From Cytophagales bacterium (lineage in GTDB: Bacteria; Bacteroidota; Bacteroidia; Cytophagales; Cyclobacteriaceae): DNA of 64,000 nucleotides. The stretch lies in assembly GCA_020402945.1 (NCBI GenBank), contig JADBYQ010000011.1, positions 1 to 64,000 on the forward strand, read 5' to 3'. The position numbers and the translations under genes are program-made. Within the stretch, counting starts at the first letter, position 1. Each line of letters starts with the position of its first letter. The notes beneath the pieces were generated by a model. That model was not told where the DNA came from and did not search any database. It saw only the letters and a list, made by a program, of their open reading frames with translations. This document shows positions 25,234 to 63,134 of this stretch, in pieces.

Positions 25234-25289
25234 TTTCCAGTATCAGGTTACTAGCAATAAACAACTAGAAACCAGCAACCTGTAACCGA
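25234..25289. repeat. Degenerate 7-bp tandem array (8 units)
   Basis: Eight consecutive heptamers of the type NAACCAG/CAACCTG (examples TTTCCAG, CAACTAG, AAACCAG, CAACCTG) fill the gap between the CBU_0592-like gene and the SMP-30 gene stop at 25291. The period is exact although the units vary. It belongs to the heptad family seen at 36206, 51092, 52929, 62483 and 63051. Confidence 0.7.
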
Positions 25290-25290
25290 T

Positions 25291-26295
25291 TCAATTCCTC
25301 AATTTTATTTTCAGCACTTGCATATCATTAGTGACAAACAGCGTTTTGCCATCGGGCGTAAGTGCACAATTGGATGTAGCTTCTTCTACTTTTATCTTTC
25401 CTAGCAATTCACCACTTCCGCTAAATATCCAAATCCCTCCCGGACCTGTCGCAAAGATATTTCCATGCGCGTCTACTTTCAACCCATCGGGTAAACCTTT
25501 TTCTGTTTTCGTATTGCTGGTCGCATCATACAAGATTTTACCGGATACGATCTGCATGAGCGGATTTAACGAATACTCATACCAAATAGCTTTTTCCGGA
25601 TCTGAGTTGGCGATAAATAGTTTTTTATTGTCAGGTGAAAAGGCGAGCCCGTTAGGGCGCGTGAGGGTATCAATTAATATCAATGTTTTTTTGTTTGAGG
25701 TATATTGGTAAACGCCTTGAAATGGAATTTCCTTTGAAGAGTCCTCCATTTGGTTGATCAATCCGTAAGGCGGATCGGTAAAATAGTAATCAAAATTATT
25801 GACGACCACATCGTTTGGACTATTGAATCGCTTACCGTGTAATTCATAGGCTATGGTAGTGAACTCCGCTTTTGGCTGGTCGGTGGGTGAATTCATCATA
25901 GCGATCCTACGATCACCATGTTGACAGATAATAAGATGACCTTCTTGGTCTAGTGTCAGTCCGTTAGAGCCTTGGGCTTTTGGATTTGGAATTGCTGCGG
26001 TATACCCTGATGGTTTTAGATAAACTTTTGCTCCCTCTTTTTCTGTCCATTGGTAGATAGTATTAGCAGGTACATCTGAAAACAGTAACATCTGTTTGTC
26101 GTCCAACCAAAGCGGCCCCTCGCTCCATTCAAAACCCTGAGCGATGACCGAAATTGTTACTTCGTTGGAGATCACTGAGTCAAGTAATGGACTCAGTCGC
26201 TCTAAAGAAACTGTTAAGCTGGTTTGTTGAGCTTCTTTCTTGGGACTGCAATGAACCAGCAAAACTGCGAGTAGGGAGGTGTAGAAAATCTTCAT
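25291..26295 (-). CDS. SMP-30/gluconolactonase-family lipoprotein
   Basis: A 334-residue lipoprotein: the signal ends in LLVHC at about residue 16. The body is a six-bladed SMP-30/Gluconolactonase/LRE propeller, with GFEWSEGPLWL (conserved Glu metal ligand), GSNGLTLDQEGHLIICQHGDRRI, NSPNDVVVN, RPNGLAFSPDNKKLFIANSD and GLPDGLKVDAHGNIFATGPGGI blades. These motifs carry the divalent-metal site of lactone hydrolases. It likely hydrolyses a sugar lactone or similar ester in the periplasm. It stands alone between a heptad array and a divergent peptidase gene. Confidence 0.93.
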   Translation of the reverse strand: MKIFYTSLLAVLLVHCSPKKEAQQTSLTVSLERLSPLLDSVISNEVTISVIAQGFEWSEGPLWLDDKQMLLFSDVPANTIYQWTEKEGAKVYLKPSGYTAAIPNPKAQGSNGLTLDQEGHLIICQHGDRRIAMMNSPTDQPKAEFTTIAYELHGKRFNSPNDVVVNNFDYYFTDPPYGLINQMEDSSKEIPFQGVYQYTSNKKTLILIDTLTRPNGLAFSPDNKKLFIANSDPEKAIWYEYSLNPLMQIVSGKILYDATSNTKTEKGLPDGLKVDAHGNIFATGPGGIWIFSGSGELLGKIKVEEATSNCALTPDGKTLFVTNDMQVLKIKLRN

Positions 26296-26367
26296 AGAAT
26301 GATGTTCATTTTTAAGTTTTATGAATTGATAAATTTAAAGTTTATTTGGAGATAAATAGATGGATCG

Positions 26368-28350: not shown

Positions 28351-28561
28351 TTCTCAATTTGCGTTTTTTCTGGTAGTCTAATAACGAAATTCGACTTCCA
28401 TCATCCTCTTTGCGCGCTTTGTCAAAAGCACGTATATCGTCTAACTCCTCGAGGCTGTCCAATAACTTATTGTAATCCTTTAAAGTGAGGAGTACGCCCA
28501 CCTTTTTTCCTTCGGTATTAGTAATAAATTGAGCTTTCATGCTGTATTTAGGTAATGCCAT
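28322..28561 (-). CDS. Antitoxin partner of the RelE-type toxin
   Basis: A 79-residue protein in the antitoxin position, with a Phd/YefM- or RelB-like N-terminal part (MKAQFITNTEGKKVGVLLTLKDYNKLLDSLEELDDI) and a charged C-terminal tail that should wrap the toxin. ATG at 28561 is chosen; TTG at 28567 and ATG at 28540 are alternatives. A -7-like TACCTTTG (minus strand, 28565-28572) ends 3 bp before this ATG, which would make the transcript leaderless or point to the later start at 28540. It likely represses its own operon. Confidence 0.88.
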   Translation of the reverse strand: MALPKYSMKAQFITNTEGKKVGVLLTLKDYNKLLDSLEELDDIRAFDKARKEDDGSRISLLDYQKKRKLRNEKVHRHLN

Positions 28562-34965: not shown

Positions 34966-36174
34966 CTAAGCGTGTACTTGAATCATCGCCCTCTCAATAC
35001 ATCCCCCAATTTTCTTCGCCAACGCGTTCACCTCTTCTTCTTTCCATGTACAACGAATGCCAAACGAAATCAATCGGCCCACGGTTTCTTGTGATTTCGG
35101 AAGCTGCAGTTTGTTATAGTGTTGAGGAGCACCAAGAATATGAATCGGAAGTTTAGCTGCCGTTTTTAAATCGCGCAAATGATTCCATTGGTTAATGAAA
35201 TGATACATGTTCGTAAACCAATAATTAAAACCACCAACACCTGCTTTATTGAATTCATCTACTGTGCGCTTAGCCGCTTCAGTATCGGGCATCAGAATAT
35301 TTAGGAACGTGGCCGAGTCACCGGCAGGATCTGCCAACGTACTGAAACTCACTCCTTCAATTTTAGATAATTCTTTTGTCAGTATCGCTTTGTGTTCACG
35401 ATTCTTCTCGCGGATAAACGGCACCTTGCGCGTCTGCGCCAATCCAATGGCTGCATTGATTTCGCCAATGCGATAATTGAAGCCCACGATCGGGTGATTT
35501 TCCATTCCGCGGTTATTGCCTACGTGGTCGTGCCCGTGATCTGAAAAACTATCGGCATGGAGATAGGCTTGCTCATCGTTGGTCACCATCACACCGCCTT
35601 CACCACACGTAGCAATTTTAAAAAAGTCGAACGAGTAGCAGCCGGTTTTTCCAAACAAGCCTACCGAAGTGCCTTTGTAAGAAGCGCCAAACGCCTGACC
35701 GGCATCTTCAATCAACGTGAGATTATGTTCTTTGCAAATTTTCAAGATCTCATCCAACTTAGCCATGCCACCGCACATATGCACGAGCATGATTGCTTTC
35801 GTTTTTGGAGTGATAGCCGCACGAATTCCTTCTGGACTTAAGCAAAGCGACTCGTCAATCTCGGCAAACACCGGCAACCCGCCAGCAAACAAAACCGCCT
35901 CTACCGAAGCGATGTAGGTAAATGGAGGCACGATTACCTCGTCCCCGGCACCTATGCCCGCGGCAGCCAATGCACACGAAACGGCTGTAGAGCCACTCGA
36001 TACGGCATGGGCAAACTTTGCGCATGTTACCTTTTTTACTTCTGCCTCAAACTCGCGGGCTTTCCAAATATTATTGCGTTGTGCATCGTGGTTATAGCGG
36101 AAGAGGATGCCCGTTTCCATGACATCATTTACCTCTTTGCGCTCTTCTATTCCAAACAGTTCAGATCCAGGCAT
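34966..36174 (-). CDS. kdnA: 8-amino-3,8-dideoxy-octulosonate aminotransferase (KdnA)
   Basis: A 402-residue DegT/DnrJ/EryC1-type PLP aminotransferase. The N terminus MPGSELFGIEERKEV and LFRYNHD resemble KdnA of Shewanella. PLP lysine Lys186 is in SFDFFKIATCGEGG; Asp157 is in IEDAGQ; HGHDHVGNNRG follows near 218. KdnA aminates 8-oxo-Kdo to Kdo8N, which changes the charge of the LPS inner core and raises polymyxin resistance in Shewanella. ATG at 36174 begins exactly at the family N terminus. kdnB lies downstream beyond the ORF6N gene, and a composite repeat element lies upstream. Confidence 0.9.
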   Translation of the reverse strand: MPGSELFGIEERKEVNDVMETGILFRYNHDAQRNNIWKAREFEAEVKKVTCAKFAHAVSSGSTAVSCALAAAGIGAGDEVIVPPFTYIASVEAVLFAGGLPVFAEIDESLCLSPEGIRAAITPKTKAIMLVHMCGGMAKLDEILKICKEHNLTLIEDAGQAFGASYKGTSVGLFGKTGCYSFDFFKIATCGEGGVMVTNDEQAYLHADSFSDHGHDHVGNNRGMENHPIVGFNYRIGEINAAIGLAQTRKVPFIREKNREHKAILTKELSKIEGVSFSTLADPAGDSATFLNILMPDTEAAKRTVDEFNKAGVGGFNYWFTNMYHFINQWNHLRDLKTAAKLPIHILGAPQHYNKLQLPKSQETVGRLISFGIRCTWKEEEVNALAKKIGGCIERAMIQVHA

Positions 36175-36205
36175 AATTGATAAGGTTAAGGGTGCAAAAA
36201 TACGA

Positions 36206-36415
36206 ATTTCAGGTTTCAAATTGCAGGCTCCAGCATCCTAGTACGAAAGGCGTGTAACCGGAGGTTTGCGGCCTGGCCGTGCGAGGCGCAGTCGGCCACC
36301 GGGCTATCCGCTGCAATCCACCCCGATAGTCATCGGGGATGGGATTTCCGCTACTATCCCTGGCCGATGCCTGCCCTTAGGTCACTTGGTAACTTGAAAC
36401 CTGCAGCCAGAAACT
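36206..36415. repeat. Composite repeat element flanked by inverted heptad arrays
   Basis: Left heptads (ATTTCAG, GTTTCAA, ATTGCAG, GCTCCAG; 36206-36240) and right heptads of opposite sense (GGTAACT, TGAAACC, TGCAGCC, AGAAACT; about 36381-36415) enclose a GC-rich core. The core has a perfect hairpin CCCCGAT-AGTC-ATCGGGG (36321-36338) between two related blocks, TCCGCTGCAATCC and TCCGCTACTATCC. It separates the divergent kdnA and methyltransferase genes and shares core blocks with 19672-19765. Confidence 0.65.
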
Positions 36416-50265: not shown

Positions 50266-50688
50266 TTATTCTTGAATTTTAGTCTTCCTAATTTTCCGCT
50301 GCAATTGCCAGAACTCCTTTCCATAATCCACCAACAATTCTTCCCCCTTTTTTATTGAGCGTTTTGCTTCAAGATAACATCGATCACCTTCACTTACATA
50401 TTCGCAATTATTTCTAAGTTTAGGTATCCTGCCAAATCCTCGTGCATCATTGGCATATCGGCCTAAGGTTTTCTTGTAGTGTAGTGCATCGATTACTGCA
50501 CTTCGGGTAATGTACATCAGATAACCGTTGTAGCCATCGAGGTGCTTCACCTCTTTCCATTTTCTCATTTTACCTTTGTATTCCAAGATGCGTGTGCCCT
50601 TACTAATTTCTATTTTAGTAAAAAGGCCTTTCCCTGCTTTCGGTAGGTTTGATTTCTTGACAAAAAGACTTTTCTCCAACAAAGCCAT
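50266..50688 (-). CDS. SET-domain protein (lysine methyltransferase-like)
   Basis: A 140-residue stand-alone SET domain: opening AGKGLFTKIEISKGTRILEYKG, the pseudoknot motif GRYANDARG with NNCEY in place of the usual NHS core, and the closing GEELLVDYGKEFW, whose Tyr is the catalytic position. Bacterial SET proteins of this size may methylate lysines on proteins; the target is unknown. It lies 6 bp downstream of the SRPBCC gene on the same strand. Confidence 0.88.
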   Translation of the reverse strand: MALLEKSLFVKKSNLPKAGKGLFTKIEISKGTRILEYKGKMRKWKEVKHLDGYNGYLMYITRSAVIDALHYKKTLGRYANDARGFGRIPKLRNNCEYVSEGDRCYLEAKRSIKKGEELLVDYGKEFWQLQRKIRKTKIQE

Positions 50689-50694
50689 GGGCTA

Positions 50695-51072
50695 CTAGGT
50701 ATAGAACTCTTCGATCGATCCGAAGTATGCGTTGATCCACCCTTCAACAATATCATCGTAATCTTGATCAGGAATATTTGTGTGCCGAATTTCTACAGAA
50801 GTTCCGGCTTTATCTTCATGGAGTTTGATCGTGACAATGGAGGGTTCGATTTGATCTCCAAAGTACCACTGCTGCACTATTTTTTTGTTGGTTTCGAACT
50901 CCAGATTTTTTCCGGCTATACTGCCTTCCCATAGCGAAAACTCACTCCCGGGCTCCGTACTCATTTCAGCCTCTTCGCCAGACCACAGATGAATGGTATT
51001 CGGATTGGTGAGTGCCAGATAGACATCTTCAGGGGGTGCGGCTATCGTAAAATATTTTTTGAAGTCTTTCAT
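50695..51072 (-). CDS. SRPBCC-domain (START-like/AHSA1) protein
   Basis: A 125-residue small helix-grip protein: KKYFTIAAPPEDVYLALTNPNTIHLWSGEEAEM, EFSLWEGSIAGKNLEFETNKKIVQQWYFGD and the C-terminal helix DDIVEGWINAYFGSIEEFY. These are the hallmarks of the AHSA1/SRPBCC fold, which binds hydrophobic ligands or, in the AHSA1 case, Hsp90. Specific role not visible. It lies downstream of a heptad-repeat array and the MaoC gene. Confidence 0.9.
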   Translation of the reverse strand: MKDFKKYFTIAAPPEDVYLALTNPNTIHLWSGEEAEMSTEPGSEFSLWEGSIAGKNLEFETNKKIVQQWYFGDQIEPSIVTIKLHEDKAGTSVEIRHTNIPDQDYDDIVEGWINAYFGSIEEFYT

Positions 51073-51091
51073 TTTTTTGAGCGGATTTGAG

Positions 51092-51147
51092 CAACAGGCT
51101 GCAAGCTAAAGGCTACAAGCGTGAGGCGTGCAGCATGAAGCTTGCAG
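51092..51147. repeat. Degenerate 7-bp tandem array (8 units)
   Basis: Eight in-phase heptamers of the type CTNNAAG/CNTGCAG (examples CTGCAAG, CTACAAG, CATGAAG, CTTGCAG). The first and last units make 11-bp inverted arms (51096-51106 and 51140-51150), so the array could fold. The array reaches the stop codon of the MaoC gene and lies between it and the SRPBCC gene. Confidence 0.7.
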
Positions 51148-51148
51148 C

Positions 51149-51622
51149 CTATTTGCTATTAATAAAGTGATACAAGAATACTAAGATTCCATTAAATGCA
51201 GGCTTGGCGTTGTCTTTGATCTCTAATGTTACATCCACCTCAAATTTAGTGATTCCGCGGAGGTTAAGAATAGAATGAAGTTTGGCTCTAAGTCTTACTT
51301 CGTGATTGACCAGCACGGGTTGATTGAATTTTAGTTTTTCAATACCATAGTTAATCATCATCTTGATATTTCTAAATTCGGCAATCTGATCCCACAAATG
51401 AGGAACCAGCGATAAGGTTAAATAACCATGCGCGATCGTGCTTTTGAAAGTGGTTTCAACAGCCGCTCGGGCAGGATCGGTGTGGATCCATTGGTGATCG
51501 AGGGTAGCATCAGCAAACCGGTTGATTTGATCCTGTGTGATGGTCGTGTATTCAGATACACCCAATTCTTTGCCTAAAAAGGTTTGGAATTCTTCGTGAC
51601 TGTTGATGACGAGTTGACTCAT
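51149..51622 (-). CDS. MaoC-like (R)-enoyl-CoA hydratase family protein
   Basis: A 157-residue single hot-dog protein. The hydratase motif is ITQDQINRFADATLDHQWIHTDPARA, where Asp and His form the catalytic pair, followed by TIAHGYLTLSLVPHLW. Members hydrate 2-enoyl-CoA or acyl-ACP substrates. ATG at 51622 matches the family N terminus; the longer frame to 51667 is unlikely. A heptad array overlaps its stop codon. Confidence 0.92.
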   Translation of the reverse strand: MSQLVINSHEEFQTFLGKELGVSEYTTITQDQINRFADATLDHQWIHTDPARAAVETTFKSTIAHGYLTLSLVPHLWDQIAEFRNIKMMINYGIEKLKFNQPVLVNHEVRLRAKLHSILNLRGITKFEVDVTLEIKDNAKPAFNGILVFLYHFINSK

Positions 51623-51715
51623 GGGTAGTAGGTTACGGGCACTAAAGTATGAAATCACATTCACCAATAAGTAAATCCATTTGGCAATTATCCGCTAAAT
51701 TTTGAATTTTGGTCG

Positions 51716-52501
51716 ATGCAGTCAGAATTTTGGTCAGTTTACTTGTTTGGATTTGGCGTGGTGATGGCGATGCTCACCTTTGTATGGATGGTGAGTGTGA
51801 AATTGACCAATGCGAGCATAGTCGATCCCTTCTGGGGATTGGGATTTGTGCTATTGGCGATTTACTATTATTTCAATACCGAGGGTGATCTAACCCGAAA
51901 AGCGGTTGTTTTACTTTTGACAAGTGTATGGGGACTTCGTTTGTTTGGGTATCTCTTATTCCGAAATGCCGGTAAGCCAGAAGATTATCGGTACGCTCAA
52001 TTCCGAAAACAATATGGTCCGGAACGGTATTGGTGGTTCAGTTTTTTTCAAGTCTTTTTGTTACAAGGAATTTTGTTGTGGCTAATTTCATCGCCATTGC
52101 TGGTTGCCCAGCAAGGGTCAGATCGCCCTTTTGGGATGTTGGATGTTTTAGGACTCACACTTTGGATCATCGGCTTCTCATTCGAGGCCGGTGGTGACTA
52201 TCAACTATCGAAATTTAAATCAGATGTATCCAACAAAGGTAAAGTATTGAATACCGGTTTTTGGAAATATACGCGCCACCCAAATTATTTTGGCGATGCC
52301 TGCGTATGGTGGGGTTTTGCGTTGTTTGCGACAGCGGCCGGAAGTTACTGGCCTGTATTGAGTTCTGTGCTCATGACATTTCTTCTTTTGAAGGTATCTG
52401 GTGTAGCTTTACTGGAAAGAGCATTGAAAAAAAACAAACCGGAATACGAGGAATACATTCGCAGAACACCATCCTTTTTCCCCTGGTTTCCTAAGAAGTA
52501 A
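51716..52501 (+). CDS. DUF1295 membrane protein (steroid 5-alpha-reductase-like)
   Basis: A 261-residue integral membrane protein with about six TM helices. The C-terminal catalytic-type region GGDYQLSKFKSDVSNKGKVLNTGFWKYTRHPNYFGDACVWWG (about 160-202), with RHPNYFGD, is the signature shared by DUF1295, isoprenylcysteine methyltransferase and steroid reductase-like enzymes. It likely acts on a lipid in the inner membrane using NADPH or SAM; the substrate is unknown. It is divergent from the MaoC gene. Confidence 0.92.
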   Translation: MQSEFWSVYLFGFGVVMAMLTFVWMVSVKLTNASIVDPFWGLGFVLLAIYYYFNTEGDLTRKAVVLLLTSVWGLRLFGYLLFRNAGKPEDYRYAQFRKQYGPERYWWFSFFQVFLLQGILLWLISSPLLVAQQGSDRPFGMLDVLGLTLWIIGFSFEAGGDYQLSKFKSDVSNKGKVLNTGFWKYTRHPNYFGDACVWWGFALFATAAGSYWPVLSSVLMTFLLLKVSGVALLERALKKNKPEYEEYIRRTPSFFPWFPKK

Positions 52502-52504
52502 GGT

Positions 52505-52921
52505 ATGAATTGGATTCGATCTGCTGTTGAAGTAAAAGACCCTCTGGTGAAGCCCAAAGTGGATGTGGAGACGTTGGCTTCGATTGACCCGTCTACGATG
52601 GAGGATTCGTTTGTGTATGTTCATTGCCATTTCAACAATACGTCTGATGACATGTTGATTCGTATCTGGTCGACTACATTCTTGGTCGACCGTGATTCAG
52701 TAGCCAGGTCGCAGCTTGTCCATGCAGAAAACATCTCGTATGCCCCACAGTGGACGATCATTCCCCGAAAGGGAGATTTTACCTTTCTACTCATTTTTGG
52801 TGGTCTTCCTAAAAGCTGTTTGATGTTTGATATGGTGGAAGAGATTGCGCAGCCGGGCGGCTTTCACATCAAAAATATCAAGCGCAACGAAACAGATGTC
52901 TATCACATTGATTTACTTTAA
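52505..52921 (+). CDS. Conserved-type hypothetical cytoplasmic protein
   Basis: A 138-residue beta-rich protein without signal or TM helix (SFVYVHCHFNNTSDDMLIRIWSTTFLVD, ISYAPQWTIIPRKGDFTFLLIFGGLPKSC, VEEIAQPGGFHIKNI). It starts 3 bp after the DUF1295 gene, so it is probably cotranscribed. I do not recognise the family; coding composition and the tight spacing support that it is real. Confidence 0.75.
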   Translation: MNWIRSAVEVKDPLVKPKVDVETLASIDPSTMEDSFVYVHCHFNNTSDDMLIRIWSTTFLVDRDSVARSQLVHAENISYAPQWTIIPRKGDFTFLLIFGGLPKSCLMFDMVEEIAQPGGFHIKNIKRNETDVYHIDLL

Positions 52922-52928
52922 AGCACAG

Positions 52929-53005
52929 TATCTACTACCTTACTACTTATGTCTAACGTCTTACTACTTACGTCTTGCATCTAATCTCTAACCTTTGACC
53001 TTATG
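52929..53005. repeat. Degenerate 7-bp tandem array (11 units) ending at a start codon
   Basis: Eleven consecutive heptamers (examples CTACTTA twice, CGTCTTA, CATCTAA, TCTCTAA) without a gap. The last unit, CCTTATG, contains the ATG of the next gene (53003-53005) in register. It fills the whole gap after the hypothetical gene at 52921. Confidence 0.75.
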
Positions 53006-54274
53006 TTATCTCGCAGAAATGTTCTCAAATCGTTAGGCCTTTCAGCGCTCTCTCTATCGGCTCTGCAAGCGCGTGCGACTGACCTGCAACAGCCTTTGCT
53101 TGATTTCGAAGATCCTAAATTTTGGGACAGTGTGCGCGGTCAATTTATGTTGAGCAAGGACAAAGTCTTTTTCAATTGTGGAACTGTGGGAGTGATGCCA
53201 CGCGTGGTTTTTGAAAAGCTAACCGAACATTCTCGCTACCTGGCTTCCGATGTTGCTGATTGGGCATACAAAGATGACAACAAAGAACAGTTCATAAGCG
53301 GCTACAATAATCTAATACCCATTCGAACGAAAGTGGCAAAACTGTTGAACTGTGAAGTAGGGGAGATTGCAATGACAGACAACGTAACGAATGGGATGAG
53401 TTACATCGCGAATGGAATGACATTGCAGCCCGGTGATGAAATTTTAACAACCGACCAAGAGCACGGGGGCGGACAATCTTCCTGGAAAGTGAAGGAGAAA
53501 CGTTTCGGTGCGGTATTCAAAACAGTAGCCATTGGAAAGCCAATTACTAGTTCGGTAGAAGTGTATGATACGATTGTAAAAGCGTTTACACCGAAGACCA
53601 AAGTGTTGATGCTGTCGCACATGATTTCCGGGTCGGGCGCTATTCTTCCTGTGAAGGAATTGTGTGCAGAGGCGAAGCGAAGAGGAATTTTTACCGTGTT
53701 AGATGGCGCTCAAACGATAGGTCACATAAAAATTAATCTGAAAGACATCGATTGCGATGCCTACGTAGGCTGCTTTCATAAATGGATAGGTGCGCCAACT
53801 GGAACGGGCTTTATGTTCGTGAAGGCAGAGCATATGAAAGACCTATGGACTACCATCGCTAGTTACCGATGGGATGATCATGCAGATGAAGGCTTTCGGT
53901 TTACACAGAGAGGAACGGGTAATTTTTCCGTTTTACTAGCCCTTGAAACAGCCCTTGATTTTCATTTTCAACTCGGGCCCGACAAAGTATATGAACGTAT
54001 CAAATTTTTGGGAGACCGCTTGCGCACGGGGCTGAAACAAAATAAGAAAGTCAAAATCTTTTCTCCGGAAGAAGACGCGATGTGTGCGGGCATTACCTTG
54101 TATACGATTGAAGGCTTAACGGGCACTCAAATCCAGGATGCATATTGGGCGAAAGCGAAGATGCGCCCGCGGTCGCAAGGCGATGTCTTTGGCGTGAGAC
54201 ATTCAACGCATATTTTTAATTCAACAGATGAAATTGACCGAGCCATAAAAATTGTAAACGAATTGTCAGCTTAA
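53003..54274 (+). CDS. Class V aminotransferase-fold protein with Tat-type signal
   Basis: A 423-residue PLP enzyme of the aspartate aminotransferase V fold (isopenicillin N epimerase-like). The N terminus LSRRNVLKSLGLSALSLSALQARA has a twin-arginine motif, so export of the folded holoenzyme is likely. The catalytic region is FHKWIGAPTGTGFMFV, with PLP Lys in the HKW motif (about residue 257), preceded by LDGAQTIGHI (Asp to the pyridine N). It acts on an amino acid or cysteine-type substrate. The heptad array runs into its start. The FMO gene follows 12 bp downstream. Confidence 0.9.
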   Translation: MLSRRNVLKSLGLSALSLSALQARATDLQQPLLDFEDPKFWDSVRGQFMLSKDKVFFNCGTVGVMPRVVFEKLTEHSRYLASDVADWAYKDDNKEQFISGYNNLIPIRTKVAKLLNCEVGEIAMTDNVTNGMSYIANGMTLQPGDEILTTDQEHGGGQSSWKVKEKRFGAVFKTVAIGKPITSSVEVYDTIVKAFTPKTKVLMLSHMISGSGAILPVKELCAEAKRRGIFTVLDGAQTIGHIKINLKDIDCDAYVGCFHKWIGAPTGTGFMFVKAEHMKDLWTTIASYRWDDHADEGFRFTQRGTGNFSVLLALETALDFHFQLGPDKVYERIKFLGDRLRTGLKQNKKVKIFSPEEDAMCAGITLYTIEGLTGTQIQDAYWAKAKMRPRSQGDVFGVRHSTHIFNSTDEIDRAIKIVNELSA

Positions 54275-54286
54275 GTATACGACCTA

Positions 54287-55576
54287 ATGAGTGTAAGAAA
54301 AAGAGTTTGCGTGATTGGTGCAGGCCCTTCGGGGATTACAGCTGCGAAAAATCTATTAGACGAAGGAATGGGTGTAGTCGTATATGATTACGGACAGGAA
54401 GTGGGTGGGAATTGGGTTTTCAATGCGAAGTCGTCACATTCAAGTGTATTTGAGACAACACATATCATTAGTTCGAAGACGTTGTCTCAGTATGATGATT
54501 TTCCATTTCCCGCAGATTATCCGGATTATCCATCCCATCAGCAGCTAGCTGCCTATTTTCAAAATTATGCGAAGCATTTTAAGTTGTATGAGCATATTCA
54601 GTTTGATACACTGGTAGAAAAGTGTGAATTAGACAATGATAAGAAGTGGAAAGTGACGACCACCAAAAGCGGAATTACGAAGACGGAATCTTTTCATGCG
54701 CTTGCCGTTTGCAACGGTCACCATTGGAAGCCCCGTTATCCAACCTATCCGGGAAATTTTTCAGGGAAGATGATGCACTCACATGATGTGAAGCGCTTTT
54801 CGGATTTCACAGATCAGCGAGTACTCGTCATCGGAGGAGGTAACTCTGCCTGTGATGTGGCAGTGGAGTCAAGTAGATTTTCGAAATCTACGGATATCAG
54901 TTGGCGGAGAGGTTATTGGATTGTACCTAAATTTATTTTTGGTAAGCCTTCCGACATAGTTGGTGGTATACTTCGAATTATGCCCAAGTTCATTTGGCGC
55001 AAAGTAACGAGCCTAATGATTAAAATAATTCAGGGGACAAATTCTTCTTATGGCCTTCCTGAGCCGGAAGACGATTTTGGATTTCATCACCCAACTATTA
55101 ATAGTGAACTGTTTTATTTTTTGCGTCATGGAAAGATTAACCCTCGAAAAGATATTGATCGCTATGAGGGGCAAACTGTGTTTTTCAAGGATGGAAGTAA
55201 ACGCGATTATGATGTGATTGTAGCTTGCACCGGCTACATTATCTCACACCCGTTTTTTGATAAAAAATTTATTGATTACTCCGAAGGTGATGTGCCGCTA
55301 TACTTAAGAATGTTGCATCCGGAAATTGAGAATGTATACTTTATAGGCTTGTTTCAGCCATTGGGGTGTATATGGCCCGGAGCAGAACTGCAAAGTAAAA
55401 TCATGGCCAAAGAGTTGGTGGGAAAATGGACGCGTCCAAAGAAAGTTGCGGCATTAGCTAACAACGAAGTGAAGCATCCCGATTTCAAGCAAATCAAAAC
55501 GCCAAGGCACACTATTACGGTTAACTATCATTCCTTTAGAGGTCGATTGTCGAAGGAGTTGGCGAAGAGTAGTTAA
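54287..55576 (+). CDS. Flavin-containing monooxygenase
   Basis: A 429-residue FMO-type enzyme. FAD motif GAGPSGITAAKNLL (residues 11-24), NADPH motif VIGGGNSACDVAVES (about 183-197), and the FMO signature variant FSGKMMHSHDVKRF (about 163-176) are in the usual order. It oxygenates nucleophilic N or S atoms using NADPH and O2. It starts 12 bp after the exported PLP enzyme; the pair may act on the same class of compound (inference). Its stop overlaps the convergent DoxX gene stop by 4 bp. Confidence 0.93.
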   Translation: MSVRKRVCVIGAGPSGITAAKNLLDEGMGVVVYDYGQEVGGNWVFNAKSSHSSVFETTHIISSKTLSQYDDFPFPADYPDYPSHQQLAAYFQNYAKHFKLYEHIQFDTLVEKCELDNDKKWKVTTTKSGITKTESFHALAVCNGHHWKPRYPTYPGNFSGKMMHSHDVKRFSDFTDQRVLVIGGGNSACDVAVESSRFSKSTDISWRRGYWIVPKFIFGKPSDIVGGILRIMPKFIWRKVTSLMIKIIQGTNSSYGLPEPEDDFGFHHPTINSELFYFLRHGKINPRKDIDRYEGQTVFFKDGSKRDYDVIVACTGYIISHPFFDKKFIDYSEGDVPLYLRMLHPEIENVYFIGLFQPLGCIWPGAELQSKIMAKELVGKWTRPKKVAALANNEVKHPDFKQIKTPRHTITVNYHSFRGRLSKELAKSS

Positions 55577-55944
55577 GTGTTACGATTACTCCACGCCCAA
55601 TAAATCAGGAGGGGATGAATCATAACGAGCCTGAACCATCCTACCCACACGGGAACACAAAGATCCCCTGCACAGCTGTTAACTTCAATAAAATAGACAT
55701 GTGAAGGTATAAATGCAATAAGCATAGCTATGATTCCAAAGGCTGCCCATTTTCTAGAAAAAGTAGGAATTAATAGGATGCCCAATAAAATCTCTATCAC
55801 ACCACTACTCCAATTAATAAGTGCGTGATATGGAAAATAGGGCGGAATGAGTGGAAGATAAAAGGAAGGATTGAGAAAATGATTAAGGCCGGCAGCAACG
55901 TAAAAGAGCGCCATGGCTAACACATTGAGAGGGTACTTTTTCAT
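55573..55944 (-). CDS. DoxX/MauE-like membrane protein
   Basis: A 123-residue protein with four TM helices (about 6-24, 40-58, 65-82, 97-116), opening with FYVAAGLNHFLNPSFYLPLIPPYFPYHALINWSSGVIEILLGILL, the DoxX-type pattern with His in the first helix region. A CAGDLCV loop follows. DoxX proteins are small quinone/thiol-linked membrane proteins of varied role. ATG at 55944 is chosen. It overlaps the FMO stop by 4 bp in convergent order. Confidence 0.85.
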   Translation of the reverse strand: MKKYPLNVLAMALFYVAAGLNHFLNPSFYLPLIPPYFPYHALINWSSGVIEILLGILLIPTFSRKWAAFGIIAMLIAFIPSHVYFIEVNSCAGDLCVPVWVGWFRLVMIHPLLIYWAWSNRNT

Positions 55945-56015
55945 CTTGTGAATTTGATTTGAATAATGTTGTCGATGCAATAAGTAGAATAGTCACTATT
56001 AACTTACTTTATTGG

Positions 56016-56300
56016 CTAATGGCCAGCTAATGGAGTCCCGAAAATTCCAACGGCAAGTTCTGCCCAAATTAACAGAAATGCTCCAATAACTAATACACAA
56101 AAAAGAATTCGATACTTGGTTTGTGTTACTTTTCTAAGCACGACTTCCAGTATAACTCCTGTAATTAGCAATAGAGTGCCCATGGCTATAAAATCAAAGA
56201 AGGTCCATTTAACTTCCTCTGTAAACTGCATCGCGATTAATGGAATAAACAGTAAAATTCCCACTGAAATTAGAATGATGACAAGTCTGTTGTTTTTCAT
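56016..56300 (-). CDS. Small three-helix membrane protein
   Basis: A 94-residue protein with three TM helices (about 6-24, 37-56, 66-85) and short charged loops (QFTEEVKW, RKVTQTKYR). It has an architecture seen in many Bacteroidota small membrane proteins, without a named family. ATG at 56300 gives a normal N terminus. It lies 71 bp upstream of the DoxX gene on the same strand and may be cotranscribed with it. Function unknown. Confidence 0.6.
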   Translation of the reverse strand: MKNNRLVIILISVGILLFIPLIAMQFTEEVKWTFFDFIAMGTLLLITGVILEVVLRKVTQTKYRILFCVLVIGAFLLIWAELAVGIFGTPLAGH

Positions 56301-56554
56301 GCTTTTTACTTCGAGATAGAACTGATTCTTTATTGTTGGCCTATTTATGAAGAATTTGCAGTTTTGCAAAACGTGTTGTTTCTAAGCTCTCTCAATATGT
56401 AAGAGGCCAACCAATGGAAGAGGTACATCTATTGTTCAAGAATCGTTGACTCGTAGAACTCAATAAGTTCTGTTAAGCCCGCCCGCACCAACGATGTATA
56501 CGCACAAAGTAAGTTGCCCTTATAATATTTCAAATTCCGCGTTACTTTTACAGG

Positions 56555-59038
56555 ATGTCTTACCCCGTTCTTGACGTACTTTCCCAACTGATTGAAAACC
56601 TCGGTCAGTATCCGATCGTAATTCTCCAAGCACCTCCCGGGGCGGGAAAGTCTACCGTCCTACCCCTTGAACTTTTAAATGCGCCATACCTAAAAAACAA
56701 TAAAATCATTTTGCTTGAACCACGCAGGCTGGCAGCCAGATCAGTTGCCGCACGCATGGCTAGCTTGTTAAAGGAAGAAGTAGGGCAGACCATTGGTTAT
56801 CGAATTCGTTTTGAAACGGTAGTGAGTGCTCAAACTCGTATCGAGGTGGTCACGGAGGGAATTCTCACTCGGATGATCCAGTCTGACAATTCACTGGAGG
56901 GCGTTGGTTTGGTTATTTTCGATGAATTCCATGAGCGCAGTTTACAAGCTGATTTAGCCTTGGCATTGTGCTACCAAAGTCAGCAAGTGCTTCGGAATGA
57001 TTTAAAATTATTGATCATGTCGGCCACCTTAGATGGTGAGAAAATTTCTGCATTGCTCGATAATGCGCCCATCATTACAAGTAGTGGGAAGCAATTCCCC
57101 ATTACCATCAAGTATCAGCCTGTTGACAAGGAAGACGCCATTGCGGTTGCAACTACTCGGGTCATTCGTAGGGCGTTAAAAGAGCAGTCAGGTGATTTAT
57201 TGGTTTTTTTACCAGGCAGTGGCGAAATTCGAAAAACGATGGAAGCTTTGAGTACCGATGAAAGTTCTGTAGTTGTTCAACCACTTTATGGCGATTTGCC
57301 ATTGAAGGAACAACAGCAAGCCATCTTGCCCCATCCGCAAGGCCTACGCAAAGTGGTGTTAGCTACTTCTATTGCCGAGACATCACTGACCATAGAAGGC
57401 ATCACAACGGTTATTGATTCAGGCTATTCTCGGGTAGCACGGTTTGATCCGCGAAGTGGTATGACTAAGCTCGAAACGATACGTGTTACAAGAGATGCAG
57501 CTGATCAACGTGCCGGTCGTGCCGGAAGGTTGGGACCGGGAGTTTGCTATCGTCTGTGGGCCGAGAATACACACAGCCATTTGTTGCCGATGCGACAGCC
57601 GGAAATTTTAGAAGCAGATTTGTCGCCACTTCTTTTAGAGTTGAGCAACTGGGGAATAAAAAACCTGAACGAGTTGCAGTGGATCACGTTGCCCCCAATA
57701 GGTACGGTTAGTCAGGCAAAACAATTGTTGCAAGAGTTGGGCGCCCTGATCGGAGACGTGATTACCCAACGGGGAAGAGCCATGTTGAAGCTTCCTACTC
57801 ACCCCAGAATTGCGCATATGTTGCTGTCGGCAAAAGAGGCGGATGCAAAGGGCAATACGCTGGCAACTGATGTAGCCGCATTGTTGGAAGAACGTGACCC
57901 ACTGTCGAAAGACGCAGGGGCTGACTTAAGTTTACGCGTGGAAGTTTTACGCAAGTGGCGAAAAGGGGAGCGAGTAAATGCTGATCGAAACGTACTGCAA
58001 CGAATTGAACGGTTGGCCTCATCCTGGCGAAAGACATTTAATTTGGAAATGGACAACGCTATCGTTGCGGATACAGATGTTGGTAAGTTTTTATCAGAAG
58101 CCTATCCTGAGCGAATTGCTCATCAGATTGAAAAACAAACCGAACGATACAAGTTAGCCAACGGCCGGGTTGTGCGGTTGCCAGATCATGATCCATTAAC
58201 GCGTGAAAGTTGGTTGTGTGTAGCGCAATTAGATGCCGGTACTAAAGGGGAAGGAAAGATGTTTTTGGCAGCGCCATTACATCTCGATGATTTGGTCGAA
58301 CGAGCTCAAGAAAAGGAAGCTGTTCGGTGGGATAAAGAAAGAGGAATGCTGGTGGCCGTGGTAGAGAAGCGAATAGGAAATGTGGTGGTCTCCACGCGAC
58401 CACTGCAAAAGATTTCTGAAGAAATAAGAATACGTGTTTTATGTGACGCGCTGCGAGAAGAAGGATTTAGTTTGCTGAATTGGCAGGATGAGCACACGGA
58501 ATGGCAGGTGCGTTTGATGTGCATTCGAGTGTGGCGACCAAATGAAGGATGGCCAGATGTTAGTGAAGAAAAACTGTTAGCCAGTGCAGAAGAATGGCTC
58601 GGTCCTTTTCTAAGTCAGGTTTCGAAGCGTATTGATTTTCACCGATTGGATTTACAGACTATTTTAACGAGCCTGCTTCCCTGGGAGCTAAATGCCAAAC
58701 TCGATAAATTAGCCCCCGCCAAATTGCAAGTTCCCAGCGGGTCAATGATCAAGCTTTACTATTTTAAAGACGGCCAAGCCCCAAAAATTGAAGTACGATT
58801 ACAAGAAATGTTTGGATTGTTAGAGACGCCAACAATTAATGAAGGAAGGGTGGAGATTGTATTGCACCTACTTTCTCCGGGTTATAAGCCTGTACAGGTA
58901 ACTCAAGACCTGAAAAGCTTTTGGCATACCATTTATCATGAAGTACGAAGTGAATTAAAGAGACGCTACCCACGCCATCATTGGCCGGAAGACCCTTGGA
59001 CTGCAGAAGCGGTGACGGGAGTAAGGAAGAAAATATGA
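56555..59038 (+). CDS. hrpB: ATP-dependent helicase HrpB
   Basis: An 827-residue DEAH/RHA-like helicase. Walker A APPGAGKST (26-34), Walker B in DEFH form (Asp123-Glu-Phe-His126), motif III SATLDG, motif VI QRAGRAGRLGPG, then the helicase-associated and HrpB C-terminal domains. The enzyme is widespread in bacteria, but its role is not firmly known. The ATG at 56555 follows an ACAGG ribosome site. The last 99 bp before codon WT are repeated perfectly 2 kb downstream with a different tail, so the present C terminus (ending TGVRKKI) may be imported. Confidence 0.95.
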   Translation: MSYPVLDVLSQLIENLGQYPIVILQAPPGAGKSTVLPLELLNAPYLKNNKIILLEPRRLAARSVAARMASLLKEEVGQTIGYRIRFETVVSAQTRIEVVTEGILTRMIQSDNSLEGVGLVIFDEFHERSLQADLALALCYQSQQVLRNDLKLLIMSATLDGEKISALLDNAPIITSSGKQFPITIKYQPVDKEDAIAVATTRVIRRALKEQSGDLLVFLPGSGEIRKTMEALSTDESSVVVQPLYGDLPLKEQQQAILPHPQGLRKVVLATSIAETSLTIEGITTVIDSGYSRVARFDPRSGMTKLETIRVTRDAADQRAGRAGRLGPGVCYRLWAENTHSHLLPMRQPEILEADLSPLLLELSNWGIKNLNELQWITLPPIGTVSQAKQLLQELGALIGDVITQRGRAMLKLPTHPRIAHMLLSAKEADAKGNTLATDVAALLEERDPLSKDAGADLSLRVEVLRKWRKGERVNADRNVLQRIERLASSWRKTFNLEMDNAIVADTDVGKFLSEAYPERIAHQIEKQTERYKLANGRVVRLPDHDPLTRESWLCVAQLDAGTKGEGKMFLAAPLHLDDLVERAQEKEAVRWDKERGMLVAVVEKRIGNVVVSTRPLQKISEEIRIRVLCDALREEGFSLLNWQDEHTEWQVRLMCIRVWRPNEGWPDVSEEKLLASAEEWLGPFLSQVSKRIDFHRLDLQTILTSLLPWELNAKLDKLAPAKLQVPSGSMIKLYYFKDGQAPKIEVRLQEMFGLLETPTINEGRVEIVLHLLSPGYKPVQVTQDLKSFWHTIYHEVRSELKRRYPRHHWPEDPWTAEAVTGVRKKI
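58903..59001 (+). repeat. 99-bp direct repeat, copy in hrpB
   Basis: Identical over 99 bp to 60965-61063. It encodes the 33 residues from QDLKSF to DPWT of HrpB. Before the repeat the two copies do not match; after it they encode related but different tails (AEAVTGVRKKI here, AEAVRGAVRKK downstream). Confidence 0.9.
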
Positions 59039-60912: not shown

Positions 60913-60964
60913 CAAATCGGAGACTTAATGATTATTTGAAACGAGTTTACTGCTTGTTGTAAAA

Positions 60965-61100
60965 TCAAGACCTGAAAAGCTTTTGGCATACCATTTATCA
61001 TGAAGTACGAAGTGAATTAAAGAGACGCTACCCACGCCATCATTGGCCGGAAGACCCTTGGACAGCTGAGGCGGTGAGGGGTGCAGTTCGGAAAAAGTAA
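60965..61100 (+). pseudogene. hrpB: Truncated second hrpB 3' end
   Basis: Starts abruptly at TCAAGACC (60965), is identical to hrpB for 99 bp, then diverges but stays in frame and homologous, ending AEAVRGAVRKK and a TAA at 61098-61100. It lacks any start and upstream coding. It may be the original hrpB terminus displaced by an insertion carrying the cytochrome c gene. It is convergent with the helicase gene (stop at 61105). Confidence 0.85.
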
Positions 61101-61104
61101 CGCA

Positions 61105-63048
61105 CTAGAAACTGACTTCAAAAGTGCTTTTGTAAAAATCATTTGTTTGTACATACTCTAACAATTTCACATAGAAAGGATGTGTGCCCAGCGTAGCACT
61201 ATCGCCAATCATGATTAGTTTCTTCTTGGCTCGGGTCATGGCTACATTGGTTCTGCGGATGTCTGCCAGAAAACCAACTTCGCCTTTCGTATTGCTACGC
61301 ACGAAACTTATAGCAATCACGTCACGCTCCTGTCCTTGAAAAGCATCTACGGTGTTGATGGTAACTAATTTGTGAAGTCGTTCCAGGAACGCAGAACTTT
61401 CGGCCAAATGATGTAGATAGTCAACCTGTGCTCGATATGGAGTGATGATTCCCATCGTGATGTTTTGAGTAATCCAATCTTCTAATCCTATTTCTTCGAC
61501 TAATTTTTCTACTACGCGAATGAGAAGTGCTGCTTCTTCTTTGTTCAATCGACTTAAAGTTTCCGGATCTTGCTCCTCGGTAAATCCGGCACCAGCAGTA
61601 TCAATAAATTCAACGGGTGGTTGATTGGGGCGCAGCAATTCTGTACGAACAGATTCATGTGCGATCAATTCGTCCTTGTAAAAATAGTTCGAAGAGAACT
61701 TCATGATGGATTCGTGCATTCTATATTGCACTTGAAGCATCGATGCCTGTGAGGGGTGCTTTAAAATTCCTTTTTCAAAAAGTGTTTCTGCCAATCCTAA
61801 CTTGGCAGCCTCGTTTGATTTTACAGTTGGTGGCAGCTGCATATGATCGCCCGCAAGGATGACGCGTTGCGCACGGAGAAATGGTATCCAGCAGGCAGGT
61901 TCCAGCGCTTGTCCGGCTTCATCAATAAATGCAGTCTTGTACCTCCTGCCTTTTAAGGTAGGGTGCGATGCGCCAACGAGAGTAGAGCAAATCACTTCGC
62001 TTTTTTGAAGTAGGTCGTTGGTAATATAGAATTCCAATGTGTCTGCATCTGACTTTAGTTGCCTGGCTTCCTCACGCAACATTCTTCGCTCTGCTTTTTC
62101 AAAATACCCAAAGCTGCGTTTGTATTTGTTTGCCTTTTGTTTGGCCTGCTCCATTTTTTTGCGCAAAAACCTCAGCTCATCAAAGTTCGGATGTTCCGCA
62201 ATTCGAGCATCCATTGTTTTACTGAGCGATTGTTCGGTAACGCGTGCCGGGTGACCAATACGGATTACGTTCAATCCTTGATCGCTCAGTTTCTCAACGA
62301 GTAGGTCAATGGCCGCATTACTTGGTGCGCATACGAGCACTTGCCCCTCTTCTTTTACCGTGTATTTGATCGCTTGAACAAGAGTGGTGGTTTTACCTGT
62401 TCCTGGAGGCCCGTGAATGAAGGCGATGTCTTTACTTTCAATTATTTTGTAGGCTGCTTTGAGTTGACTTTCATTTAAAATGGTTGCCAATTGCCAGTTC
62501 CTGGTTCCCTGTTCACCAGCGACAGGCAACCGGTAACCGGCAACCCCGCCTCCCAGCAGCAGCTCTCGAAAGTCCGCTACTCTATCGTCCTCTGCTTCAA
62601 TTACTTTTTTTAACGTATACTCCATCTCACGATAGCTCATCTCATCAAACATCACATCTACACCTAGTGAACCGCTATCAATCCATTCCGGAAGATCATC
62701 CCCGTTTAAGGTGATTACCATGAGATTGTCACGTACATAGTTAATAACGCCATTTTGATGTTGCTTTTCAGATTTGCCAGAGGCATTTGAAAAGACACTT
62801 ACCATCTTTCCACTTTGAAAGGCGTGAGGTTGATCTTTTTGGGTCGTGCGTTCTACTTCAATAATGATTCGCTCACCAGTTCCTATATACTCCTTCGCCA
62901 GTCGAACAGGGTACCAGGTCATGCCTTCTTTTACGCGAGCATGCAAAGGCCGCATTAATACTTTTTGCCGATATTGTTCTAAGTCAGCCTGACGTTCCAA
63001 TTGCAGAAGGCCAAGTGTTTTGCGGAGTTGCACTTTAGAAGATTCCAA
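61105..63048 (-). CDS. UPF1/IGHMBP2-like SF1 helicase (AAA_11/AAA_12)
   Basis: A 647-residue SF1B helicase. Walker A GPPGTGKTT (213-221), Walker B DEAGQALEPACW, motif III GDHMQLPPTVKS, motif IV-V in GIITPYRAQVDYL and VDAFQGQERDVI, and motif VI TNVAMTRAKKKL are all present. The N-terminal region is an OB-like domain (EGMTWYPVRLAKEYIGTGERI). Residues about 169-189 are encoded by a 63-bp heptad array inserted in frame. The start is TTG at 63048; no ATG is available in the conserved N terminus. Role in DNA or RNA metabolism is unknown. Confidence 0.93.
   Translation of the reverse strand: MESSKVQLRKTLGLLQLERQADLEQYRQKVLMRPLHARVKEGMTWYPVRLAKEYIGTGERIIIEVERTTQKDQPHAFQSGKMVSVFSNASGKSEKQHQNGVINYVRDNLMVITLNGDDLPEWIDSGSLGVDVMFDEMSYREMEYTLKKVIEAEDDRVADFRELLLGGGVAGYRLPVAGEQGTRNWQLATILNESQLKAAYKIIESKDIAFIHGPPGTGKTTTLVQAIKYTVKEEGQVLVCAPSNAAIDLLVEKLSDQGLNVIRIGHPARVTEQSLSKTMDARIAEHPNFDELRFLRKKMEQAKQKANKYKRSFGYFEKAERRMLREEARQLKSDADTLEFYITNDLLQKSEVICSTLVGASHPTLKGRRYKTAFIDEAGQALEPACWIPFLRAQRVILAGDHMQLPPTVKSNEAAKLGLAETLFEKGILKHPSQASMLQVQYRMHESIMKFSSNYFYKDELIAHESVRTELLRPNQPPVEFIDTAGAGFTEEQDPETLSRLNKEEAALLIRVVEKLVEEIGLEDWITQNITMGIITPYRAQVDYLHHLAESSAFLERLHKLVTINTVDAFQGQERDVIAISFVRSNTKGEVGFLADIRRTNVAMTRAKKKLIMIGDSATLGTHPFYVKLLEYVQTNDFYKSTFEVSF
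62483..62545. repeat. In-frame 7-bp tandem array inside the helicase gene
   Basis: Nine heptamers: five of the GTTGCCA type (GTTGCCA, ATTGCCA, GTTCCTG...) then, after one mixed unit, three of the complementary type (GGCAACC, GGTAACC, GGCAACC). Total length is 63 bp, divisible by both 7 and 3, so it adds exactly 21 codons (GYRLPVAG... to ...NWQLAT) just before the helicase core. Confidence 0.85.
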
Positions 63049-63050
63049 TT

Positions 63051-63134
63051 TTTTTAACTTTTAACTTTTACCTTTTATCTTCTGACTTCTGACTTCTGTA
63101 TTTTAACTTCTAACCTCTAACCGCCAACTTCTTA
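63051..63134. repeat. Degenerate 7-bp tandem array (12 units)
   Basis: Twelve in-phase units of consensus CTTYTRA (CTTTTAA, CTTTTAC, CTTCTGA twice, CTTCTAA, CCTCTAA). It starts 2 bp after the helicase start (63048) and runs 25 bp into the 3' end of the SMUG2-like gene (stop at 63110), so it supplies that protein's last residues. Confidence 0.8.

What the first reader, a model, noticed from the sequence alone, without database searches (positions are those of the whole stretch)
25234..63134. Dispersed family of degenerate arrays with a strict 7-bp period
At six places (25234, 36206/36381, 51092, 52929, 62483, 63051) stretches of 35-84 bp parse without gaps into 5-12 heptamers. Units within a site are related but not identical, and consensus differs between sites (CTTYTRA, CNTCTTA, CTNNAAG, NAACCAG, GTTGCCA). 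Keeping the period while letting the sequence change suggests a process that copies in 7-base steps, or a spacing constraint, rather than ordinary microsatellite slippage. Heptanucleotide short tandem repeats (STRR) are known in cyanobacteria; I know of no described system for these variable arrays in Bacteroidota.
Basis: partly seen in the sequence, partly recalled or inferred. Interest (0 to 1): 0.8.

Follow-up and report, generated by a model that had tools for sequence, protein, structure and literature searches.

The report
Seven-base-step hairpins between bacterial genes
The odd seven-base ladders are real: most of them belong to families of imperfect hairpins built from changing seven-base steps and lodged mainly between genes, also seen in related bacteria, and neither their origin nor their job is known.

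Summary
In 574 kb of this genome a sequence-free scan gives 12 period-7 segments, 1 each at periods 6 and 8. Genome-wide, AAC at four 7-bp steps gives 82 overlapping hits against 1 at 8-bp steps.

The sites are not one family. 25234, 36206/36381 and 62483 are family A, grammar (GTTNCYR)n...(YRGNAAC)n; 51092 is a GC-rich hairpin family; 52929 is another family; 63051 is a plain tandem repeat.

Most are inverted repeats. All 27 paired arrays found in this genome run GTT-left, AAC-right. Of 105 arrays in six genome sets, 42 have an inverted copy in the flank against 14 a direct one; 59 counting inversions inside. They mostly sit in gaps next to stop codons. In a close relative 8 retained arrays are 90% identical, four-fold sites 63%; 3 of 21 compared sites carry a different heptad family.

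In family A immediate neighbours are no more alike than units elsewhere; family B is mixed. No link to reverse transcriptase or Y1 transposase genes was found.

Best reading: REP-like palindromes with heptad architecture; origin and function inferred.

The parts
25233..25286 (.). Family A heptad hairpin in the gap between ORFs 24343-25035(-) and 25291-26295(-, SMP-30/gluconolactonase-like); right arm about 25252-25286, short left arm about 25244-25252
   Evidence: AAC heptad hit 25263-25286; profile from non-window arrays 27.1 bits at 25259-25286, above the maximum of 20 resamples; inverted arms CAGGTTACT/AGCAACCTG 89%; genes
36206..36414 (.). Family A element with two inverted arms (36206-36233 and about 36381-36414) and a long spacer, between DegT-type aminotransferase ORF 34966-36219(-) and a methyltransferase ORF (+)
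   Evidence: arms 36210-36222 / 36391-36403, 92% complementary; profile 28.5 bits for the right arm, 12.5 bits (0.25 expected) for the left; genes
51093..51153 (.). GC-rich heptad hairpin (GCTNCAR-like by eye), between AHSA1-like ORF 50695-51072(-) and MaoC-like ORF 51149-51667(-)
   Evidence: 28-nt arms 79% complementary; other genomic matches at C45 (E 5.5e-7) and C47 (2.3e-5), weak ones at C77, C90, C96, C55 (E 0.01-0.16); C45, C47, C77, C90 and C55 fold as hairpins, C96 not clearly; replaced in L053, kept in L111
52930..53002 (+). Family D array (CTTAC/GTCTTA type; GACGTAA-GTAGTAA on the other strand), single arm here, between ORF 52505-52921(+) and a class-V aminotransferase-like ORF starting 53003(+)
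   Evidence: period-7 score 15.2; no inverted partner; in L111, 95% identical around it, all 7 indels of 8.7 kb fall in it; only weak matches elsewhere in the genome (E 0.04 or more), one inside a strong hairpin after a stop codon (L333)
62483..62545 (.). Family A hairpin inside the SF1 helicase ORF 61105-63048(-), coding the variable linker before the AAA_11 domain
   Evidence: 18-nt arms, 78%; 29.0 and 26.8 bits; variable linker in relatives; period-7 arrays there in 11 of 64 relative loci; Pfam
63052..63128 (+). Family C direct tandem array (TTYTRAC)n between the helicase ORF and a uracil-DNA-glycosylase-family ORF 63110-63832(-); overlaps the 3' end of that ORF
   Evidence: period-7 score 37, the strongest in the window; unit number and content differ in L053, L054, L111

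Best explanation
The arrays are a heptad-phased class of repetitive extragenic palindromes (REP-like in behaviour, not shown to be REPs). A typical element is an imperfect hairpin whose two arms are each a run of degenerate 7-bp units obeying a family grammar (family A: GTTNCYR on the left, its reverse complement on the right). Shown: period 7, palindromic layout with one polarity, placement mostly in gaps next to stop codons, several families in one genome, slow per-base change when retained, unit-sized gains and losses, and occasional replacement of one family by another at the same gap (families assigned by eye). Inferred: the period is kept because gain or loss of a whole unit in either arm leaves the arms able to pair in a new register, whereas another indel breaks the stem; the sequence can drift because in family A only about four of seven positions seem to matter. 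Also inferred: elements enter or replace one another en bloc and act at gene 3' ends as intercistronic or 3' hairpins. The element at 63051 is instead an ordinary tandem repeat of a related unit.
For: Period specificity. Palindromes: 27 of 27 GTT/AAC pairs in the order GTT then AAC, none reversed (window plus 32 loci, most chosen by the AAC pattern); of 105 arrays found by period alone, 42 have an inverted copy in the flank against 14 a direct one, 59 counting inversions inside; folding z below -2 in 24 of 26 (+) and 23 of 26 (-), means -4.1 and -3.8. Placement: of 20 intergenic hairpins 15 co-directional, 4 convergent, 1 divergent, against 61 divergent of 262 background gaps (binomial p about 0.035, my arithmetic; ORF cut-offs 70 and 90 aa differ); 12 of 20 have 9 nt or less on both sides to the flanking ORFs, 17 of 20 on at least one. 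In G028 (same order) 15 of 20 sampled elements (of 51 hits) read GTT-sense within -5 to 9 nt of a stop codon, 2 of 20 in the other sense. Constraint: 8 retained sites 526/586 identical (0.90) against 1253/1993 (0.63) at four-fold sites; in family A position 5 is 61/65 identical, positions 6+7 are 91/130, Fisher p 9e-5. 7-nt indels: 12, of which about 10 in arrays by eye; 6-nt 14, 8-nt 3, 9-nt 11 (related pairs, not independent). Swaps at orthologous gaps.
Against: Arms do not covary beyond the shared grammar: family A 0.596 against 0.573 for mismatched arms, p 0.16; B 0.600 against 0.622. A structure under selection should show compensation. Sense and antisense folds are equally stable (sense better in 7 of 14 co-directional cases), which gives no support to an RNA role on the sense strand. 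The position-specific conservation is partly produced by unit shifts that the alignment hides (L190/L212), and the own/G010 sites were found by a pattern that requires AAC. Family B shows no position effect (p 0.78). Four of 27 hairpins lie inside ORFs. Most lack a T-run, so they are not ordinary terminators. In G028 most sampled elements look single-armed with a longer consensus (by eye). Family B has more shared two-unit strings between sites than expected (13 against 5.1, p 0.004) and alternate units alike, which points to some copying. No mobilising enzyme was found.
Confidence: 0.45

Rival explanations
1. Mutational by-product: replication slippage in 7-nt steps plus fold-back template switching makes heptad runs and inverts them, in any DNA that tolerates it; no function.
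For: 7-, 14-, 21- and 27-nt differences between relatives; one right-arm unit gained in G010 equals the reverse complement of a common left-arm unit (L190/L212, by eye); plain tandem arrays exist (63051; TAAAATC about x19 in G207); in-frame runs in a variable helicase linker; units two steps apart are somewhat alike and family B shares two-unit strings between sites (p 0.004). Heptanucleotide repeats are reported as the most abundant long class in most genomes studied, with a polymerase-slippage proposal (Mrazek 2007, seen only as cited in PMC4679880 and PMC4692102).
Against: Immediate neighbours in family A are not more alike than distant units: 0.438 against 0.417, 0.474 against 0.488; family B and G028 neighbours are less alike (0.489 against 0.577, p 0.002; 0.503 against 0.554, p 0.0005), though one search has B neighbours at 0.496 against 0.455. 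Family A shows no excess of shared multi-unit strings. Retained arrays change more slowly than four-fold sites. Divergent gaps are under-used.
Confidence: 0.3
2. Binding-site arrays for an oligomeric DNA-binding protein that steps along DNA in 7-bp units, as the ribbon-helix-helix ParB (Omega) does on WATCACW heptads in direct and inverted order.
For: Period 7, direct and inverted arrangements, fixed core with free positions, no arm covariation, no strand difference in folding. Precedent: PMC9499535 (passages): 7-10 consecutive 7-bp repeats, each bound by one dimer.
Against: Several unrelated grammars in one genome and swaps between them at one gap; no candidate protein was sought or identified; period-8 versions in other genomes.
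Confidence: 0.12
3. Known REP elements moved by a RAYT/Y1 transposase, or products of a reverse transcriptase.
For: Dispersed extragenic palindromes; Y1_Tnp found in 29 of 39 and RVT_1 in 14 of 39 genomes.
Against: No correlation over 25 genomes of the genus (Spearman 0.01 and 0.22); six genomes without a Y1 match have 20, 52, 64, 37, 76 and 3 hits. Units carry no fixed GTAG; in the A and B sets of the own genome copies share a grammar, not a sequence.
Confidence: 0.05

Closest known systems
TAACTGA heptamer direct repeats of Beggiatoaceae, Cyanobacteria and five Bacteroidetes (MacGregor 2015, PMC4679880)
   Same: Intergenic, heptamer, dispersed in tens to hundreds; some sets split by related heptamers; indels mostly in 7-nt steps between two Cyanothece strains. 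TAACTGA reads GTTATCA on the other strand, which fits GTTNYYR (my comparison).
   Different: There they are exact direct repeats, 132 of 170 sets of the main genome upstream of a start codon, with one inverted set; here most are degenerate, palindromic, and in several families per genome.
Heptanucleotide long simple sequence repeats (Mrazek 2007, as cited); STRRs of cyanobacteria (name recalled); GGGAATC repeats of Xanthomonas and Nostoc (Rehm 2015, PMC4692102, passages)
   Same: Period 7 preferred; intergenic; an inverted pair in Xanthomonas; length and sequence vary between close relatives.
   Different: Those are described by one consensus heptamer; here immediate neighbours in family A are not alike beyond the grammar.
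REP elements, including GTAG- and CGTC-tagged palindromes (PMC3733652, abstract and passages)
   Same: Short dispersed extragenic palindromes, some inside genes.
   Different: No fixed GTAG or CGTC in the units, no shared sequence between copies beyond the grammar in the sets tested, heptad arms, no link to Y1 transposases.
parS heptads of pSM19035 bound by the RHH protein ParB/Omega (PMC9499535, passages)
   Same: Contiguous 7-bp repeats in direct and inverted order with a partly free consensus.
   Different: Plasmid centromere with one consensus; here chromosomal, many loci, many grammars, no protein known.

Membership tests
Simple (slippage) tandem repeat / STRR | Neighbouring units identical or more alike than units elsewhere (family A) | tested here: not met
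   (units two apart slightly alike, p 0.05). By eye met for the 63051-type family C arrays
Simple (slippage) tandem repeat / STRR | Neighbouring units identical or more alike than units elsewhere (family B) | tested here: inconclusive
   less alike, slightly more alike; the sets and phases differ
Simple (slippage) tandem repeat / STRR | Copy number changes by whole units between relatives | tested here: met
   7-, 14-, 21-nt differences
TAACTGA-type heptamer repeats (MacGregor) | Exact TAACTGA direct repeats, mostly upstream of start codons | tested here: not met
   units and inverted layout differ; TAACTGA itself was not searched for
REP (GTAG/CGTC-tagged palindrome) | Extragenic palindrome in many copies | tested here: met
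REP (GTAG/CGTC-tagged palindrome) | Copies share a recognisable sequence with a tagged end | tested here: not met
   no three-unit string shared between sites in the own A and B sets; unit tables show no fixed GTAG or CGTC. Ends were not aligned separately; in G028 two sites share a 24-mer
REP (GTAG/CGTC-tagged palindrome) | Association with a RAYT/Y1 transposase | tested here: not met
   (genome-level counts only; Y1_Tnp model, not RAYT-specific)
Intrinsic terminator | G+C hairpin followed by a U-tract | tested here: not met
   3' flanks of 26 hairpins read by eye, mostly without T-runs; exceptions L163, L195, L197, L198
parS-like heptads bound by an RHH protein | A protein dimer binding each heptad | not testable with these tools
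   no protein-DNA data

The most novel reading that the evidence does not exclude
Bacteroidota carry a phylum-wide, previously undescribed class of intergenic elements: palindromes written in 7-bp (in some genomes 8-bp) steps by a genome-specific grammar, in which the step and the symmetry are maintained while the letters are replaced wholesale at the same gene gap. This would imply a dedicated activity (a binding protein, or a writer or exchanger) that recognises step and symmetry rather than sequence.
Probability: 0.25. Interest if true: 0.85.

Novelty: new variant of a known kind. Interest (0 to 1): 0.6.

Why it matters
Heptanucleotide repeats have been noted as over-represented in bacteria, with polymerase slippage proposed; slippage predicts like neighbours. 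Here the best-sampled family is palindromic, has immediate neighbours that are not alike, changes slowly where kept, and can be swapped for another family at the same gap. That makes the question testable: is the 7-bp step a mutational footprint, a structural requirement or a protein footprint? It would also describe a widespread occupant of intercistronic gaps that a tandem-repeat finder partly misses.

Tried and rejected
Rejected: a link to Y1/REP transposases or reverse transcriptases; ordinary intrinsic terminators; known RNA families (no Rfam match at gathering score in the window); tRNA genes (none in the window); integron attC sites (polarity recalled as AAC...GTT, opposite to what is seen; not tested).

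AAC as a universal key was rejected. In the 25 genomes of the genus AAC at period 7 occurs 962 times against 386 for the backwards control; across 247 Bacteroidota genomes the control is raised too (6946 AAC and 3982 control at period 7; 1496 and 1393 at period 8), and AAC exceeds its control in 108 genomes and falls below it in 102. What holds phylum-wide is period 7 over 8 (150 genomes against 40). Hits overlap within long runs, so these are not counts of loci; the own genome's 82 hits form 56 separate runs by my count.

Arm covariation was looked for and not found. Shared two-unit strings: family A 6 against 4.4 expected (p 0.28), B 13 against 5.1 (p 0.004); the B set mixes phases and sub-families, so its mutual-information rows mean little. 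That family B is a 7-bp repeat as such is weakened by G028, where sampled elements share a longer consensus.

Limits: ORFs are longest-frame guesses, so start-codon margins may be too small; most genomes are draft MAGs; own and G010 sites were chosen by a pattern that requires AAC; of 29 G010 loci 18 matched my own-genome loci and 11 did not; one search used 15 of the 21 sites; regions of G071 and G215 were partly picked near pattern hits; G207 was picked for its many hits, and there period 9 (54 segments, mostly one coding-like repeat) exceeds period 7 (32).
Full report
WHAT WAS CHECKED. The six places were read and scanned without assuming a sequence. At score 12 or more the window has 3 segments at period 7, none at 6 or 8, and none at period 7 in 10 Markov resamples; the four best period-7 segments are four of the reported sites. 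Tandem Repeats Finder lists 63052-63114, 62525-62545 and, as period 14, 51118-51148 among 24 rows. The weak sites were tested with a profile of family A units built from arrays outside the window: 25259-25286 (27.1 bits), 36387-36414 (28.5) and 62483-62544 (29.0 and 26.8) exceed the maximum of 20 resamples (16.6); 36206-36233 scores 12.5 with 0.25 expected.

GENOME-WIDE. The window lies in a 4.38 Mb draft genome of 136 contigs whose relatives are Cytophagales / Cyclobacteriaceae / Flammeovirgaceae MAGs and cultured Chryseosolibacter, Chryseolinea, Dawidia, Ohtaekwangia. In a 574 kb sample, window included, period 7 has 12 segments at score 12 or more, periods 6 and 8 one each, period 12 four, resampled sequence 2. 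At score 16 period 7 has 3 (one in the window, one where a pattern search had pointed), period 12 one, period 16 two. In 400 kb of G020, G012 and G024, not chosen by arrays, score 16 gives 7 at period 7, none at 6, 3 at 8. AAC at four 7-bp steps has 82 overlapping hits in the whole genome (56 runs by my count) and 1 at 8-bp steps; the backwards controls give 21 and 8. In 25 genomes of the genus the sums are 962 (control 386) at period 7 and 73 (control 64) at 8; in 247 Bacteroidota genomes 6946 (3982) and 1496 (1393). So period 7 over 8 is general in the phylum; the AAC key is not. Some genomes have period 8 arrays in the same style.

ANATOMY. Reading the loci showed inverted arms. In the window plus 32 own loci I found 27 neighbouring pairs of GTT and AAC ladders; all run GTT then AAC, none the other way. 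With no sequence assumed, 105 period-7 (in three genomes also period-8) arrays were tested: 42 have an inverted copy within 100 bp at nominal p 0.02, 14 a direct one; counting arrays whose second half inverts the first, 59. The relatives' set includes orthologous copies of the helicase site, and some regions were picked near pattern hits, so these are not all independent. Folding is strong on both strands. Families seen in this genome, named by eye: A, (GTTNCYR)n and complement; B, (GTTRKTS)n and complement; a GC-rich one at 51092 with matches at C45 and C47 and weaker ones at C77, C90, C96, C55; D at 52929; a GTATTGA-like one; and plain tandem TTCTAAC (C). The window's sites are three A, one GC-rich, one D, one C.

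PLACEMENT. Of 27 hairpins, 15 lie between co-directional ORFs, 4 between convergent, 1 between divergent, 4 inside ORFs, 3 at locus edges. Background gaps of 40 nt or more: 175 co-directional, 26 convergent, 61 divergent. Twelve of the 20 intergenic ones leave 9 nt or less on each side. In G028, 15 of 20 sampled elements read GTT-sense at -5 to 9 nt from a stop codon and 2 of 20 in the opposite sense. The in-gene case in the window is an SF1 helicase: the array codes a linker just before the AAA_11 domain that varies among relatives; 11 of 64 relative loci have a period-7 array of score 12 or more there.

HOW IT CHANGES. Against G010 (helicase protein 93% identical), 8 retained sites are 526/586 identical over ungapped positions, while four-fold sites of the flanking ORFs are 1253/1993. 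A ninth site, L187:7149, was replaced. Of 21 sites compared (63051 through L054, whose alignment figures equal those of the G010 locus), 17 keep their family, 3 carry a different heptad family (L187:7149, B against D; about C60:54.1 kb, GC-rich against B; L128, GTATTGA-like against B) and 1 is unclear (L121); families were assigned by eye. In the window region L111 is 95% identical over 8.7 kb and all 7 indels there fall in the 52929 array; L053 lacks the 51092 hairpin. Indels of 7 nt number 12 (about 10 in arrays by eye), of 6 nt 14, of 8 nt 3, of 9 nt 11.

WHAT THE UNITS SAY. In family A neighbouring units match at 0.438 of free positions, units at other sites 0.417; with pattern-hit data 0.474 against 0.488, and units two apart 0.547 against 0.495, p 0.05. 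Family B is inconsistent: 0.496 for neighbours and 0.571 two apart against 0.455 elsewhere, but 0.489 against 0.577, whose sets differ. In G028 neighbours are less alike (0.503 against 0.554), the first free base repeating in 10% against 30% expected; these elements share a longer consensus, so this is at least partly a fixed order of units. Arms do not match each other beyond grammar. Family A positions differ in conservation between own and G010: GTT 0.94-0.97, position 4 0.80, position 5 0.94, position 6 0.74, position 7 0.66; position 5 against 6+7, p 9e-5 over 7 sites, 0.03 for intergenic sites alone, 0.002 for in-ORF sites. The caveat is real: in L190/L212 one unit gained and another lost shows up as free-position mismatches, so some of this is unit replacement. 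Family B shows no such contrast (p 0.78).

MECHANISM. Shown: heptad period, palindromic polarity, gap placement, families, slow change, unit indels, family swaps. Inferred: whole-unit indels are tolerated because the arms re-pair in the next register; other indels break the stem; this keeps the step without keeping the letters. Inferred and weaker: a role at gene 3' ends. Against an RNA role: sense and antisense folds are equally stable (sense better in 7 of 14), and there is no covariation. The rivals are a by-product of slippage and fold-back synthesis, and a protein that binds every 7 bp as the RHH ParB (Omega) does on WATCACW heptads (PMC9499535, passages).

COMPARISON WITH PRINT. Nine literature searches were made, in the open PMC subset only. 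The nearest paper is MacGregor 2015 (PMC4679880; abstract, passages and the section on Cyanobacteria and Bacteroidetes read): exact TAACTGA repeats, five Bacteroidetes included, one inverted set in 170. Rehm 2015 (PMC4692102; passages) describes G-rich heptamers with an inverted pair. REP elements: PMC3733652 (passages). The text I read does not describe degenerate palindromic heptad arrays or family swaps; subscription papers were not searchable.

Noticed in passing
window 50277-59019 and 60962-63808 against L111: Identity to one relative drops from 95.1% to 86.7% between neighbouring stretches, which suggests a recombination boundary near 59-61 kb.
   Followed up: no
window 23031-23051: A three-unit family A-like match (19.1 bits, above the maximum of 20 resamples, 16.7) inside ORF 21744-23240(-); may be a decayed in-gene array.
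   Followed up: no
G024:C1: Thirteen reverse-transcriptase (RVT_1) matches, nine with nearly the same score, look like a recent expansion of one retroelement.
   Followed up: no
L253 (G207:C1:4000001-4020000), 165-4757: A long repeat of about 99 bp period with an inner 9-bp period, probably coding.
   Followed up: no
L245 (G207:C1:2000001-2020000), 2443-2728: An octamer array followed after about 45 bp by a nearly perfect TAAAATC array of about 19 units: two step lengths side by side.
   Followed up: no
G021, G026, G071, G215, G230: Period-8 lexicons (such as AACACRTY, AACCATAT, AACAAGTG, AACCCAAC, AACYTTNC), some as inverted pairs, in genomes of the same phylum; G021 is in the same genus.
   Followed up: partly
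L301, L303, L316 (G028): Some G028 elements are closed by a short variable stem, which can include the stop codon (for example TGATA...TATCA in L301), with the heptads in the loop (by eye).
   Followed up: partly
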